DNA of 64,000 bases from the NCBI RefSeq assembly GCF_039830135.1, contig NZ_CP156081.1, positions 3,520,001 through 3,584,000 of the forward strand. The letters are read 5' to 3'. Shown here piece by piece: positions 34,112 to 64,000 of the stretch (positions are counted from its first letter, which is position 1; the number at the start of each line of letters is the position of its first letter). The notes beneath the pieces were generated by a model. That model worked only from the letters and a program-made list of their open reading frames with translations, did no database searches and was not told the origin of the DNA. Source of the DNA: Defluviimonas sp. SAOS-178_SWC (lineage in GTDB: Bacteria; Pseudomonadota; Alphaproteobacteria; Rhodobacterales; Rhodobacteraceae). Position numbers and translations under genes: made by a program.

Positions 34112-34272
34112 TGCTTCGCCTCCGAGGCCGGAAGCTGGCCCTCCTCAAGATGCGAGATCTTCACGACCGTCAGACCGAACACCAGCGCAACGAAGGCGCC
34201 GAGGACGAGACCGAGACCGAGGTTGCGCCCGAAGCGGCGGCCGTGAATCTCATGATCGCGGTGAATGGCCAT
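34108..34272 (-). CDS. Small single-helix membrane protein between ctaB and ctaG
   Basis: 54 residues. Charged start ([17 protein letters not shown]), one hydrophobic helix (about 18-40), polar tail. A short membrane ORF at this place is common in alphaproteobacterial oxidase clusters (CoxF-like). The start overlaps the ctaB stop as TAATG and its stop overlaps the ctaG start as ATGA, so coupling to both neighbours is strong evidence that it is translated. It probably assists oxidase assembly. Confidence 0.85.
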
Positions 34273-35204
34273 TACCACCCTCCAAGCCCAAAGGGCGCCA
34301 GGCTCGTCTCGACCAGAAGCGCACCGAAATGCAGGAAAAGATAGGCGAGCGAGAAGCGGAAGAACGCCTTCTCGGCCTTGTAGCCGTCCGCCTCGGCCTG
34401 TCCCTCGTCGCGACGGACGATGCGGATCGCGCCGCGGATGAACATCAGGTTCAGGACCACGGCCGTCACCAGCGTGACCGGCCCGCCGATCGAGGTAAGC
34501 GCCAGCGCCAGCGCCATCGGCGCGAGCAGGAGCGTGTAGACGAGGATGTGTTTGCGGGTTGCCGCCCGGCCATGCGTGACCGTCAGCATCGGCACGCCTG
34601 CCTTGGAATAGTCGTCCTTCATGAAAAGCGCGAGCGCCCAGAAATGCGGCGGCGTCCACATGAAGATCAGACCGAACATCAAAAGCGATTCGAGCGAAAC
34701 GCCGCCCGTCGCCACGGCCCAGCCGATCATCGGAGGAAAGGCCCCGGCCGCGCCGCCGATGACGATGTTCTGCGGCGTCGAACGCTTGAGCCACATCGTG
34801 TAAACGACGACGTAAAAGAAGATCGTGAAGCCCAGGAACGCGCCCGCGAACCAGTTCGCGGCGAGCCCGAGCATCAGGCAAGAGAGGCCCGAAAGCGCAA
34901 GGCCAAGGCCCAGCGCCTCGCCTTCGGTGACACGGCCGGACGGGATCGGCCGCGACTGCGTCCGCCGCATTACCCGGTCGATATCGGCGTCATACCACAT
35001 GTTCAGGGCGCCCGACGCACCGCCACCGAGCGCGATGAAGAGGATCGCGGTGAAGGCGACGAACGGATGGACCGAAACGGGCGCCACGATCAGCCCGACC
35101 ATCGCGGTGAAGACCACCAGCGACATGACACGCGGCTTCAGGAGCTGGACGTAATCGCCGAAGCCCGCCTCCTGCCCGTGGTCAATGGCGCTCAGATCGC
35201 TCAT
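34272..35204 (-). CDS. ctaB: Protoheme IX farnesyltransferase (heme O synthase)
   Basis: 310 residues of the UbiA superfamily, with about nine hydrophobic segments. It farnesylates protoheme to heme O, precursor of heme a. Motifs: [14 protein letters not shown], the Mg-prenyl-diphosphate site [23 protein letters not shown], and [28 protein letters not shown]. Start follows GGGAGGGGACCCG. It lies 53 bp after ctaC, with a GC hairpin in between. Confidence 0.96.
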
Positions 35205-46300: not shown

Positions 46301-47314
46301 ATGATGAGCGCAGACCTGCCCCTTCCCAAATCCCCTTCCCCGGCGCCAACGCGGCGGCTGCGGGACATCGTCGTGATCGGCGGTCTTCTCGTGCTGTTCG
46401 CCGCCGGGCTCATCGGCCTCGCCGCCGCCACCGGCTGGGAAGAGACGCGCGCCCAGATTGCCCGCCTCGCGCTTTGGCAGGGGGCGGTTCTGCTGGCTCT
46501 GTCGCTCGCCAATTACCTGCTGCGCGGGTTGCGCTGGCACTTCTTCGCCCGTCGCCTCGGCCTCGCGACGACACTTCCGCAGGACCTGCGGCATTTTCTC
46601 GGCGGCTTCGCGATGGTTGTGACGCCCGGCCGGGTCGGTGAACTGGTCCGCATGCGCTGGCTGAAGCGCGAGACGGGTTGGGCCTTCGAACGCACGGCGC
46701 CGCTGGCGCTGGTGGACCGCGCCTCCGACCTTGCCGCGATGGCGCTGCTCCTCGGGTTGTCCGTCTCGCTCGCCACGACCGGGGTAAGAGGCGCGGTGCC
46801 GGTGACGCTCCTGGCGCTGGCGGCGGCGGTCGTCGCGACGCGGCCAAAGCTTCTTGCCGGGCTCGTCACCCTCGCCCACCGGATGACAGGGCGGGTGCCC
46901 CGGATCTTCGGGCGGCTCCGCGCCTCCGCCCGATCGCTCGACCGTTTCGCCGGCGCGGGCGCCACGATCCCGGCACTTTTTCTCGGCATCGGCGGCTGGT
47001 TCGCCGAGGGCTACGCCTTCCACCTGCTTCTCGGCTGGATGGGCGCCGATATCGGTCTCATGAAGGCCATCGCCATTTTTGTCTTCGCCACCCTCGCCGG
47101 CGGCCTGACCGGGGCACCGGGCGGGGTCGGCGGGGCCGAGGCGGCGATGATCGCGCTTCTGGCATTCGAAGGCATTCCGATGGAAGTCTCGGTGCCCGCC
47201 ACTGCGATCATCCGCGTCACCACACTCTGGTTCGCGCTCGGGATCGGCATGGCCGTCTTCCCCTTCGCCGAACGCCATTCCCTGAGGGGGGCAAATGCTC
47301 TGGAAGACCGCTGA
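46301..47314 (+). CDS. UPF0104/lysylphosphatidylglycerol synthase-type membrane protein
   Basis: 337 residues from the ATG at 46301, with about eight hydrophobic segments. Family elements are NYLLRGLRWHFFARRLG, FAMVVTPGRVGELVRMRWLK (P-G-R-x-GE), LVDRASDLAAMALLL and GLTGAPGGVGGAEAAMIALL. This integral membrane family includes AglD-like proteins and the MprF flippase domain; it acts on lipid-linked sugars or lipids. It overlaps the DprE1-like gene by 20 bp, so a role in moving polyprenyl-linked arabinose is a reasonable inference. Confidence 0.85.
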   Translation: MMSADLPLPKSPSPAPTRRLRDIVVIGGLLVLFAAGLIGLAAATGWEETRAQIARLALWQGAVLLALSLANYLLRGLRWHFFARRLGLATTLPQDLRHFLGGFAMVVTPGRVGELVRMRWLKRETGWAFERTAPLALVDRASDLAAMALLLGLSVSLATTGVRGAVPVTLLALAAAVVATRPKLLAGLVTLAHRMTGRVPRIFGRLRASARSLDRFAGAGATIPALFLGIGGWFAEGYAFHLLLGWMGADIGLMKAIAIFVFATLAGGLTGAPGGVGGAEAAMIALLAFEGIPMEVSVPATAIIRVTTLWFALGIGMAVFPFAERHSLRGANALEDR

Positions 47315-48608
47315 TTATGCCGGCTGGGGCCGCGCGCTGACCGCCAAGGGCGAGATCGCCCGGCCGGAACGGCGCCGCGCCCTCGACGCGCTTCTGAAAG
47401 ACGGGCTTGTCCCGGCGATCGGCATGCGCCGCAGCTATGGCGACGCCGCATTGAACGACGGCGGCCGCGTGATCGACATGACGCGGCTTGACCGGATGCT
47501 CGGCTTCGATCCCGCGACCGGTATCCTCGATGTCGAGGCCGGCGCGCGGGTGGGCGAGATCGCCGCCACCTTCGCCCCCAGGGGCTGGCTTCCGGCCGTC
47601 ATGCCCGGCACCGGCTTCGCCACTGTGGGCGGCTGCATCGGCCAGGACGTGCATGGCAAGAACCACCATCATGCGGGTTCGTTCTGCGAACATGTGGTTT
47701 CGCTCACGCTGCTGACGGCCAAAGGCGCGGTCGAAGTGTCGCGCGACAAGACACCGGAGCTGTTCAGCGCCACCGCCGGCGGGCTGGGCCAGACCGGGGT
47801 GATCGCCTCGGCGCGCCTGAAGCTCCTGCCCTGCAAGGGCGACGTGATGGTCGTGACCGAGCGTCGGGTCGAGGGGTGGGACGAATTCCTCGCCCTCCTC
47901 GACGCGTCCGAGGCGACCTATACGGTCGGTTGGATCGACGCCACCGCGACCGGCGCCGCCCTGGGGCGCGGTATTCTGGAGGAGGGTGAGACCGGATCGG
48001 GCCTTGTCCCGAAGCGGGTCAAGTACCGCAAGGTGCCCTTCGACGCGCCGCACTTCTCGCTGGCCGGGCCGGTGGTGCGCAGCTTCAACGCCGCCTATTA
48101 CCGCCGGGTGCCCGCGACGGGGCGGACCGTTGTGAAACCGATCTCGGATTTCTTCTTTCCGCTCGACAAGATCCACGACTGGAACCGGCTTTACGGAAAG
48201 CGCGGCTTCCACCAGTTCCAATGCGTCGTGCCGCTGGCCTCCGCCCCCGCCCTTCGCGACATGCTGGATGAGATCGCCAGTTCCGGCCTCGCCTCGCCGC
48301 TCGCCGTCCTGAAACGCATGGGACCGGGGCGGGCCGGTTACCTGAGCTTCCCGATGGAGGGCTACACCCTTGCCGTCGACTTCCCCAACCGCGCTGAGGC
48401 GCGCGAACTGATCCGCCGACTCGAAGCGCTGTCGGTCGATGCCGGAGGGCGGCTTTATTTCGCCAAGGACAGCCTCGCCCGCGGCACCGACATACCCGCG
48501 ATGTATCCGGATCTTGCCGAGTGGCAGGCGGAGGTCACGAAGGCCGATCCGGATGGTGCGCTGATCACCGACCTTGTCCGCCGCCTCAACCTCAGGAGCG
48601 CCGCATGA
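47295..48608 (+). CDS. DprE1-like decaprenylphosphoryl-ribose 2-oxidase
   Basis: 437 residues. N-terminal FAD domain: GMRRSYGDAALNDGGRVIDM, MPGTGFATVGGCIGQDVHGKNHHHAGSF, GLGQTGVIASARL. C-terminal substrate domain: VLKRMGPGRAGYLSFPMEGYTLAVDF, GGRLYFAKDS and AMYPDLAEWQ, which match mycobacterial DprE1 closely by eye. It oxidises polyprenyl-phosphoryl-ribose to the 2-keto form. The position of the benzothiazinone-reactive Cys387 of M. tuberculosis is alanine here (GYTLAVDF for GWNICVDF). It overlaps the genes on both sides, making a three-gene unit. Confidence 0.9.
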   Translation: MLWKTADYAGWGRALTAKGEIARPERRRALDALLKDGLVPAIGMRRSYGDAALNDGGRVIDMTRLDRMLGFDPATGILDVEAGARVGEIAATFAPRGWLPAVMPGTGFATVGGCIGQDVHGKNHHHAGSFCEHVVSLTLLTAKGAVEVSRDKTPELFSATAGGLGQTGVIASARLKLLPCKGDVMVVTERRVEGWDEFLALLDASEATYTVGWIDATATGAALGRGILEEGETGSGLVPKRVKYRKVPFDAPHFSLAGPVVRSFNAAYYRRVPATGRTVVKPISDFFFPLDKIHDWNRLYGKRGFHQFQCVVPLASAPALRDMLDEIASSGLASPLAVLKRMGPGRAGYLSFPMEGYTLAVDFPNRAEARELIRRLEALSVDAGGRLYFAKDSLARGTDIPAMYPDLAEWQAEVTKADPDGALITDLVRRLNLRSAA

Positions 48609-49342
48609 ATTCGACCTGGATCATTCTCGGCGCTACCTCGGCGATGGCCCGCGCCTTCGCTCGCGCGGTGTCGGCCGAAGGCGCGGCCGTCCTTCTTGCC
48701 GGGCGCGACAAGGACGACCTCGCGGCCCTCGCGTCAGACTGCGCCTTGCGCGGCGCACGGCTGGCCGAAGCGGTCGAGTTCGACGCCCGCAAGCCCAAGA
48801 GCTTCGCCGCGCTGATCGAGCGGATGGAGGCGGAGGAGGGAGAACTCAACGCCGCGGTCTTCGTCGGGTCGATGCCAGAACAGTCGGCGATCGACGCCGA
48901 TCCCTCGCTGATCGACGGCGTCGTGACCGACAGCCATACCGGCCCCGCCCGCTTCCTGCAGATGCTCGCGCCCGTCATGGAGGCACGCGGCGGCGGCACC
49001 GTGGTTGGCGTCGCCTCGGTCGCCGGCGACAGGGGACGGATCGGAAATTACGTCTACGGGTCCGCCAAGGCGGGCTTCGCGACCTATTTATCCGGCCTTC
49101 GGAACCGCCTGACGCGGGCCGGCGGGCATGTGGTCACGGTCAAACCCGGCTTCGTCGATACCGCGATGACTTGGGGCCTGCCGGGGATGTTCCTCGTCGC
49201 CGCGCCGGAGGCCGTGGCGGGCGATATCCTAAAGGCGGTCCGCAAGAGGCGGAACACGGTCTACACGCCATTCTTCTGGCGCTACATCATGCTGATCATC
49301 CGGCACATCCCGGAGCCGATCTTCAAGAAGATGAAGATCTGA
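48605..49342 (+). CDS. DprE2-like SDR, decaprenylphosphoryl-2-keto-ribose reductase
   Basis: 245 residues. N-terminal ILGATSAMARAFARAVSAEGA is the cofactor loop of the DprE2 type; active site Ser in GVASVAGDRG and YGSAK (Tyr-x3-Lys) are present. VKPGFVDTAMTWGLPGMFL and a hydrophobic C-terminus (PFFWRYIMLIIRHIPEP) fit DprE2, which reduces the 2-keto intermediate to polyprenyl-phosphoryl-arabinose. The start overlaps the end of the DprE1-like gene (ATGA). Confidence 0.9.
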   Translation: MNSTWIILGATSAMARAFARAVSAEGAAVLLAGRDKDDLAALASDCALRGARLAEAVEFDARKPKSFAALIERMEAEEGELNAAVFVGSMPEQSAIDADPSLIDGVVTDSHTGPARFLQMLAPVMEARGGGTVVGVASVAGDRGRIGNYVYGSAKAGFATYLSGLRNRLTRAGGHVVTVKPGFVDTAMTWGLPGMFLVAAPEAVAGDILKAVRKRRNTVYTPFFWRYIMLIIRHIPEPIFKKMKI

Positions 49343-61226: not shown

Positions 61227-61589
61227 CTACCCCAAAAGGATGACGAGCCAAGCCAGGCCGCCCGCGCTTGCCGTAAGCGCAACGGCAGCCGAGCCGCAAT
61301 CCTTGGCCTTCCCCGCGCGCGGATGCCGCTCGGGCGAGGCGAGGTCGACAATCTCCTCGATCGCCGTGTTGAAAAGCTCCGCCGCAAGGACCAGCAGACC
61401 GAGTGCCACGATCAGCGCCCGCTCACCCGTCGTGAGGTCGAGCGAAAACGCGAGCGCCACCGACAGGAGGTTGATCACACTCCATTGCCGAAGTGACTTT
61501 TCGCTCGCCCAAGCCGCCCGCCACCCCTGGAGCGACCAGCGGCAGGTGTTGGCGAAGCGCCGGATTTCGCCGCCGATGAATGCGCGCAT
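61227..61589 (-). CDS. dgkA: Diacylglycerol kinase DgkA
   Basis: 120 residues with three membrane helices. The family motif is [36 protein letters not shown], including the catalytic NTAIE. It phosphorylates diacylglycerol (or undecaprenol in related enzymes) in the inner membrane, recycling lipid by-products. The ATG at 61589 follows GGGAGGGATTC; one at 61604 would add five residues. Confidence 0.93.
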
Positions 61590-61700
61590 GAATCCCTCCC
61601 GCATCGTTTCGGGCAACGTAACGGGTGCCGCAGCGCCCTGCCAATCGGGAACCGCGCGCCGGATGACCGGCGGTGGCGGGAATGTCACGGGTACCGGCGG

Positions 61701-63185: not shown

Positions 63186-64000
63186 TCAGCCCCCGAACCA
63201 CTGCGACCAGAGCCCGGCGGCCCAGAACATCAGGCTGAGCGTGATCATCAGGATGCCAATGCCGAACTTGTCGCGCATCGCGAAGACGATCGGGTCGTAA
63301 TCCTGCTTGCCGAACCAGCCGAGCATCACCATCCGCACGAGCCAGAGCGTCATCGGGATCATCGCGAGCCAAAGGATCCAGGTCGTCGGATAAAGCTCCT
63401 GCCCCTGATCGCTGATCGAATAGAGAAAGAAGATGAGGACGGCGCCGATCGTGCCGAGCCAGGCGACGTTGAGAAGATCGCCCCGGTCCGGCCGTCCGTA
63501 ACCCCGCCCCGGCAATCGTTCGTCCGAGGTCGCGAGCGTCAGTTCCGTCAGCCGCTTTACGCATCCGAGCGTGATGAAGATCGGGAAGATGAAGATCAGC
63601 ATGTAGATCGAGACCTCGACCTGACCGGCCGCGGCTCCGGCGATCACCCGGATCGTGTAGAGCGCTGCCAGGGTCGAGATATCCACCCAGCGCAGCCGCT
63701 TCAGCTTCAACGAATAGGCGAGCGAGGTGACCATGTAGAGCACGACGACCCCGAAGAACGCCCAGTTGAGCGCCGCCGCGACCCCGAGCGCGAGGAGCAT
63801 GAGCCCCCCGAACGTGGCCATCCCGACCGCAATCGGCACATCGCCGCTGGCAAATGGCCGCCGGCATTTCGTCGGATGCAGCCGGTCGGCTTCGAGGTCG
63901 AGAAGATCGTTGACGATATAGATGGAGGAGGCGGCCGCGGAAAACGCGACGATGCCCCAAAGGATCGGAACCAGTGTCACCAGATCGAAACGGTGCGCCG
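63186..64000 (-). CDS. UbiA-family decaprenyl-phosphate phosphoribosyltransferase-like protein, 3' part
   Basis: About 271 codons are visible; the frame continues past the right edge (AHRFDLVTLVPILWG). The aspartate-rich motif YIVNDLLDLEADRLHPTKCRRPFASG corresponds to the NDxxDxxxDxxHPTKxxRPIA motif of Rv3806c, and YSLKLKRLRWVDI and LGCVKRLTEL match the second conserved region. Rv3806c-type enzymes join PRPP and polyprenyl phosphate, the step before DprE1/DprE2, whose homologues lie at 47.3-49.3 kb. In many alphaproteobacteria the gene also has an N-terminal HAD domain, which would lie outside the window. A chlorophyll or menaquinone prenyltransferase is less likely because of the HPTK motif. 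Confidence 0.85.
   Translation of the reverse strand, partial: AHRFDLVTLVPILWGIVAFSAAASSIYIVNDLLDLEADRLHPTKCRRPFASGDVPIAVGMATFGGLMLLALGVAAALNWAFFGVVVLYMVTSLAYSLKLKRLRWVDISTLAALYTIRVIAGAAAGQVEVSIYMLIFIFPIFITLGCVKRLTELTLATSDERLPGRGYGRPDRGDLLNVAWLGTIGAVLIFFLYSISDQGQELYPTTWILWLAMIPMTLWLVRMVMLGWFGKQDYDPIVFAMRDKFGIGILMITLSLMFWAAGLWSQWFGG

What the first reader, a model, noticed from the sequence alone, without database searches (positions are those of the whole stretch)
46301..49342. Three-gene unit for polyprenyl-phosphate arabinose in an alphaproteobacterium
A UPF0104-like membrane protein, a DprE1-like oxidase and a DprE2-like reductase overlap one another. DprE1/E2 epimerise decaprenyl-phosphoryl-ribose to the arabinose form in mycobacteria, and homologues modify Nod factors in Azorhizobium. 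The close match of DprE1 motifs (GGRLYFAKDS, AMYPDLAEW) supports the assignment. Here there is no Nod context, so the arabinosylated product and the acceptor glycan are unknown. The membrane protein could be the flippase.
Basis: partly seen in the sequence, partly recalled or inferred. Interest (0 to 1): 0.72.

Follow-up and report, generated by a model that had tools for sequence, protein, structure and literature searches.

The report
Arabinose-donor genes tied to Tad pili
The three genes look like part of a conserved set in one bacterial family that makes a lipid-bound arabinose and probably attaches it outside the cell, most likely to the thin Tad pili, which would give these pili a sugar coat like the one known from some Pseudomonas pili.

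Summary
The overlapping trio is real: LPG_synthase_TM membrane protein, DprE1-like oxidase, DprE2-like reductase. "Polyprenyl-phosphate arabinofuranose" is well supported, but the trio is only part of the system. The priming enzyme, a HAD-UbiA fusion (phosphoribosyltransferase plus phosphatase), lies across the window's right edge (63186-64619). In most relatives fetched it sits between the trio and a Tad/Flp pilus operon whose end carries an orphan membrane protein ("GTC" here). GTC has no Pfam or NCBIfam match, but its confident model (pLDDT 93) resembles GT-C enzymes, arabinosyltransferase AftA first. In 149 family genomes all 39 with the close DprE1 type carry GTC (43 do); among 122 with the orthologous Tad gene, 38 have both, 3 GTC only, 0 DprE1 only, 81 neither. 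Where trio and Tad locus are apart, all parts tested are still kept. Best explanation: an arabinofuranose donor-and-transfer system serving the Tad pilus, analogous to TfpW glycosylation of Pseudomonas pili. Donor part about 0.85, GTC as transferase about 0.75, pilus as acceptor about 0.55. No chemistry was tested.

The parts
46301..47314 (+). LPG_synthase_TM (UPF0104-like) membrane protein, candidate flippase for the polyprenyl-phosphate sugar
   Evidence: PF03706 134 bits, TIGR00374 'flippase-like' 68 bits; found with DprE1 in 77 of 80 named loci and in 4 of 13 DprE1 loci fetched from other families or of the distant type
47295..48608 (+). DprE1-like FAD oxidase
   Evidence: nine best solved relatives are DprE1; NF053785 383 bits, below the cut-off of 500; HGKN[HQ]H in 97 of 100 and AKD in 100 of 100 loci
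48605..49342 (+). DprE2-like SDR reductase
   Evidence: best solved relative is DprE2; NF005489 at its cut-off, NF053786 second and below its cut-off
63186..64000 (-). 3' part of the HAD-UbiA fusion (polyprenyl-phosphate phosphoribosyltransferase + 5'-phosphatase); the gene runs to 64619, outside the window
   Evidence: NF006088 520 bits (cut-off 351), then decaprenyl-phosphate phosphoribosyltransferase models, below their own cut-offs; best solved relative 8j8j, E 8.9e-28

Best explanation
The trio is the epimerase-and-export part of a system that makes polyprenyl-phosphate-D-arabinofuranose and uses it outside the membrane. [quoted passage not shown] (2) its HAD half removes the 5'-phosphate; (3) DprE1 oxidises C2 of the ribose; (4) DprE2 reduces it to arabinose; (5) the LPG_synthase_TM protein flips the lipid-linked sugar; (6) GTC, a GT-C-like protein encoded at the end of the Tad/Flp pilus operon, transfers arabinofuranose to the Tad pilus, most likely to the Flp pilin. 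Shown by computation: the homologies, the shared locus, co-occurrence, and the GT-C-like fold of the GTC model. Inferred only: substrate, flippase role, sugar and acceptor.
Confidence: 0.55

Rival explanations
1. Same donor pathway and same GT-C transferase, but the acceptor is a surface polysaccharide, lipopolysaccharide or another envelope protein; the place beside the Tad genes is an inherited neighbourhood.
For: GTC sits away from Tad in six genomes, next to the same ATPase-like gene as elsewhere. In 13 DprE1 loci from other families or of the distant type no Tad set lies within the fetched flanks (one weak TadC match in L277). Known three-component systems act on O antigens (PMC11127046, passages).
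Against: 38 of 39 genomes with close DprE1 have the orthologous Tad CpaC, against 122 of 149 overall (hypergeometric P 0.0014, not free of kinship); the exception G117 has a truncated DprE2 and no HAD-UbiA match. GTC lies beside CpaA in 27 of the 30 GTC loci L069-L098.
Confidence: 0.28
2. The oxidase-reductase pair acts on polyprenyl-phosphate-ribose but yields another pentofuranose, or the system delivers ribose with the pair serving another step.
For: Both scores are below the NCBI cut-offs for DprE1/DprE2. PMC11127046 (abstract and passages) reports that auxiliary epimerases diversify the pentofuranose.
Against: HGKN[HQ]H and AKD motifs are kept and no other solved family comes close in sequence.
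Confidence: 0.1
3. The trio is unrelated to cell-surface sugars, for example an alditol or lactone oxidase with a general SDR.
For: Weak matches to lactone and xylitol oxidases.
Against: Those matches are over 200 bits weaker than DprE1 and cover the N-terminal part only; HAD-UbiA and GT-C-like neighbours.
Confidence: 0.04

Closest known systems
TfpW type IV pilin arabinosylation of Pseudomonas paraeruginosa (PSPA7_6245-6251 plus TfpW)
   Same: Donor genes that include a ubiA gene, and a transferase encoded with the pilin gene (PMC12369383, passages)
   Different: Tad/Flp pilus instead of type IVa; GTC has no Pfam family and was not compared with TfpW, whose sequence was not at hand; acceptor not shown
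Three-component pentofuranose systems of Citrobacter youngae (GT136)
   Same: Phosphatase-UbiA fusion as priming enzyme plus a GT-C enzyme (PMC11127046, passages)
   Different: DprE1/DprE2-like pair and an LPG_synthase_TM protein instead of a MATE flippase; pilus locus instead of an O-antigen locus
Mycobacterial decaprenyl-phosphoryl-arabinose pathway (Rv3806c, DprE1, DprE2, AftA/Emb)
   Same: Same enzyme families for priming and epimerisation; AftA is GTC's first structural match
   Different: Phosphatase is a HAD domain fused to UbiA; the flippase candidate is another family; no arabinogalactan is expected (recalled)
noeCHOP of Azorhizobium
   Same: Donor genes for D-arabinofuranose in an alphaproteobacterium (PMC5080398, passages)
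   Different: Nod factor acceptor and NoeP transferase

Membership tests
DprE1 | NCBIfam equivalog NF053785 cut-off (500 bits) | tested here: not met
   383.4 bits
DprE1 | closest solved relatives are DprE1; FAD domain; HGKNHH and AKD motifs | tested here: met
   (97 of 100; 100 of 100)
DprE1 | oxidises polyprenyl-phosphoryl ribose | not testable with these tools
   needs enzyme assay
DprE2 | NCBIfam equivalog NF053786 cut-off (250 bits) | tested here: not met
   156.9 bits, second best model after NF005489
DprE2 | closest solved relative is DprE2; SDR Tyr-Lys motif | tested here: met
   Y[GA][AST][AST]K in 99 of 100
Polyprenyl-phosphate phosphoribosyltransferase with HAD phosphatase | NF006088 cut-off, NDxxDxxxD and HAD DxDGT motifs | tested here: met
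   520 v 351 bits; 61 of 61 and 60 of 61 full-length proteins
GT-C glycosyltransferase (GTC) | GT-C fold with conserved acidic residues after the first helix (the latter recalled) | tested here: met
   a shared fold shows no function
Three-component pentofuranose system | flippase of MATE or SMR type in the set | tested here: inconclusive
   gene 1 is LPG_synthase_TM; no other flippase was looked for
TfpW-type pilin arabinosylation | transferase gene beside pilus genes | tested here: met
TfpW-type pilin arabinosylation | homology to TfpW | not tested
   TfpW sequence not at hand
TfpW-type pilin arabinosylation | arabinose on the pilin | not testable with these tools
   needs mass spectrometry
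noeCHOP | Nod factor genes | not tested
   no search for nod genes was made

The most novel reading that the evidence does not exclude
A glycosylation system dedicated to Tad/Flp pili: about a quarter of the sampled family genomes (39 of 149) coat their Flp pilins with D-arabinofuranose by an unclassified GT-C family fed by a DprE1/DprE2 pathway, perhaps to hide the pilus from pilus-binding phages.
Probability: 0.45. Interest if true: 0.8.

Novelty: new variant of a known kind. Interest (0 to 1): 0.68.

Why it matters
D-arabinofuranose is best known from mycobacterial walls, and pilin arabinosylation from a few Pseudomonas. A conserved donor set tied to Tad pili in Rhodobacteraceae would name the acceptor, propose a new GT-C family, and offer a harmless laboratory host (Rhodobacter capsulatus) for the DprE1/DprE2 pathway. 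It would also bear on how these bacteria attach and meet phages.

Tried and rejected
Sequence search of GTC against the PDB found nothing up to E 1, and Pfam and NCBIfam nothing up to E 0.001; the fold was needed. The GTC family was looked for in 289 genomes of the class: own genome plus two weak partial matches in one other family; the 20 kb around both show no Tad genes (L280, L282). Pilin tails as an independent test gave no significant Ser/Thr enrichment (39 pilins of 23 loci against 65 of 34 loci; 6 of the 40 GTC-free loci gave no pilin); a C-terminal pattern written after looking (17 of 39 v 2 of 65) is not used as evidence. The other long UbiA frame of this genome (C2:572 kb) matched 4-hydroxybenzoate octaprenyltransferase over its cut-off, its long N-terminus looking like a wrong start (my reading), and the two remaining ones heme O synthase. 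GTC-only genomes: G019 has HAD-UbiA near a contig start, so its trio may be cut off; G102 (35% identity, 5.8 kb contig) and G113 (32%, partial) were not resolved. The ten paper searches were made; those that could show a printed link of Tad/Flp pili with arabinose or glycosyltransferases were 32, 33, 44, 71, 73, 98, 99. Of one search's 29 papers 15 were listed. I saw listings for most papers and 'find' passages for PMC5080398, PMC12369383, PMC11841053, PMC11127046, PMC8383342 (no hits), PMC11067988, PMC12307814. None of the passages seen describes such a link; PMC12307814 mentions that RcpC has been implicated in Flp pilin glycosylation. The library holds open-licence papers only. VIA-align covers only Foldseek's own list, so absence of a family there means nothing.

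Full report
What is there. The window is G000:C2:3520001-3584000. Three overlapping + strand genes lie at 46301-47314, 47295-48608 and 48605-49342. They are an LPG_synthase_TM membrane protein, a DprE1-like oxidase whose nine nearest solved relatives are DprE1, and an SDR whose nearest solved relative is DprE2 by a wide margin (96 v 57 bits). Both enzymes miss the NCBI equivalog cut-offs for DprE1 and DprE2 (383 v 500; 157 v 250), so they are relatives, not certified members. HGKN[HQ]H is kept in 97 of 100 loci and AKD in 100 of 100. The residue before VDFP is Ala here and Cys in the aligned DprE1 chain 4aut; that this is the cysteine hit by covalent DprE1 inhibitors is recalled.

The missing first step. 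A search for UbiA proteins in the genome gave four. One is a HAD-UbiA fusion at window 63186 to 64619, cut by the window's edge. It scores 520 bits on NF006088 (cut-off 351), then on decaprenyl-phosphate phosphoribosyltransferase models below their cut-offs, and its best solved relative is that enzyme (8j8j). A phosphatase-UbiA fusion was shown in Citrobacter youngae to be a polyprenyl phosphoribose synthase (PMC11127046, passages). The other three UbiA proteins match heme O synthase (two) and 4-hydroxybenzoate octaprenyltransferase (one), over the cut-offs.

The locus in relatives. Stretches of 20 family genomes, 19 of them picked because DprE1 and GTC lay near each other, show a conserved order: LPG_synthase_TM, DprE1, DprE2, then HAD-UbiA and a transglycosylase (SLT) on the other strand, then Flp, CpaB, CpaC, OmpA-like, CpaE, CpaF, TadB, TadC, TadD, a TPR protein, CpaA, and at the end, facing back, an orphan membrane protein called GTC here. 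HAD-UbiA is beside DprE2 in 16 of 20 and GTC is present in 19 of 20; L117 has the Tad block turned round. Over all 39 close-type genomes, DprE1 and GTC lie within 20 kb on one contig in 29 (counted by eye). In 80 named loci found by DprE1 alone (hosts include Rhodobacter capsulatus, Thioclava, Defluviimonas, Aliiroseovarius, Oceanicola granulosus), LPG_synthase_TM was found in 77, DprE2 in 80 and HAD-UbiA in 46; a Tad-side gene (SLT, Flp, CpaB, CpaC or CpaF) is within the flank in 58; of the other 22, 9 have a short flank on the Tad side and 13 have 10 kb on both sides. In the window's genome 13.8 kb of other genes separate DprE2 from HAD-UbiA; in the same-genus genome G010 they are adjacent.

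Co-occurrence. In 149 family genomes DprE1 matches were found in 52: 39 of the close type (over 50% identity; one of them, G069, a 110-residue piece) and 13 of a distant type. GTC was found in 43 and HAD-UbiA in 62. All 39 close-type genomes carry GTC. GTC without close DprE1 occurs in G019, G102, G112 and G113. CpaC matched in 129 genomes, 122 of them over 50% identity; the 7 weaker were left out. Among the 122: 38 both, 3 GTC only, 0 DprE1 only, 81 neither; Fisher 1.9e-28, not corrected for kinship. On a CpaB tree of 61 rows (22 with GTC; 39 of the 40 I had fetched from the 81 'neither' genomes, one having no CpaB match) the label changes at least 7 times, 3 of them forced by starred branches. 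So trio and GTC come and go together several times.

Split loci and losses. Of the 13 named loci with no Tad gene in 10 kb on either side, 11 genomes were tested and all 11 have GTC (the other two of the 13 genomes in that call were L164 and L185, whose trio is beside Tad). Nine of the 11 were tested for CpaC and HAD-UbiA and all nine have both. In six (five Rhodobacter and one Maritimibacter) GTC is also away from Tad: only GTC, a general SDR match and in one case an OmpA-like piece were found in the 20 kb around it. G112 has Tad and GTC but no close DprE1; it has a distant DprE1/DprE2/HAD-UbiA set on the same contig. G117 shows what looks like one deletion that fuses the first two thirds of DprE2 to the TPR gene and removes HAD-UbiA and most Tad genes; LPG_synthase_TM, DprE1, CpaA and GTC are left.

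Against. Silicimonas algicola (G161) has the trio and GTC but only two UbiA proteins, both over 200 bits with frames of 308 and 324 aa, which look like the housekeeping ones (not named by a family search). G079 shows no HAD-UbiA match; a 308-aa UbiA match there was not examined. Five genomes have only a distant HAD-UbiA. In 12 of the 58 named loci with a Tad-side gene HAD-UbiA is not seen. Pilin tails do not differ significantly in Ser/Thr. Nothing here measures a sugar. 81 of 122 Tad-bearing genomes lack the system, so it is an optional trait.

Wider view. In 289 genomes of the class, DprE1 matches occur in 36 while GTC occurs in the own genome and, weakly, in two of one other family. Thirteen DprE1 loci, twelve from other families and one of the distant type, show UbiA beside DprE1 in twelve and LPG_synthase_TM in four, without the Tad set (one weak TadC match). 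The recurrent LPG_synthase_TM partner supports, without proving, a role in donor export.

Reading. The donor pathway is likely. GTC is the best candidate transferase by fold, locus and co-occurrence. The Tad pilus as acceptor rests on locus, on 38 of 39 genomes having the orthologous Tad gene, and on the Pseudomonas precedent in which TfpW arabinosylates the pilin encoded with it and so blocks pilus-binding phages (PMC12369383 and PMC11841053, passages). The paper searches named in Tried and rejected turned up no report of it for Tad pili in the open-licence library.

Noticed in passing
G011, G041, G078, G084, G101, G107, G112, G122, G125, G131, G142, G144, G147: A second, distant DprE1 type (41-49% identity) in 13 of 149 family genomes, in 13 of 13 next to a HAD-UbiA match (gap about 1 kb or less): probably a separate arabinofuranose system.
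   Followed up: partly
L269:567-1943 and GTC loci of relatives: A conserved ATPase-like protein of about 436 aa, without a Pfam match over cut-off, lies divergently beside GTC in 45 of 45 loci searched (several from the same genomes) and travels with it when GTC leaves the Tad locus.
   Followed up: partly
L220:8022-9236 (G117): Natural deletion fusing the first two thirds of DprE2 with a Tad TPR protein.
   Followed up: yes
window 61227-61688, - strand: Small protein that reads like a diacylglycerol kinase (recalled motif; no NCBIfam hit) close to the HAD-UbiA gene.
   Followed up: no
L282:8904-10697 and L280 (family f66): Distant GTC-like proteins outside the family, with no Tad genes in the 20 kb around.
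   Followed up: partly
L274:3749-5875: In another family a DUF6311/DUF7024 protein stands upstream, on the other strand, of the UbiA-LPG_synthase_TM-DprE1-DprE2 genes: a candidate transferase there.
   Followed up: no
G000:C1:16383-17270: A second heme O synthase on the small contig besides the one at window 34272-35204.
   Followed up: no
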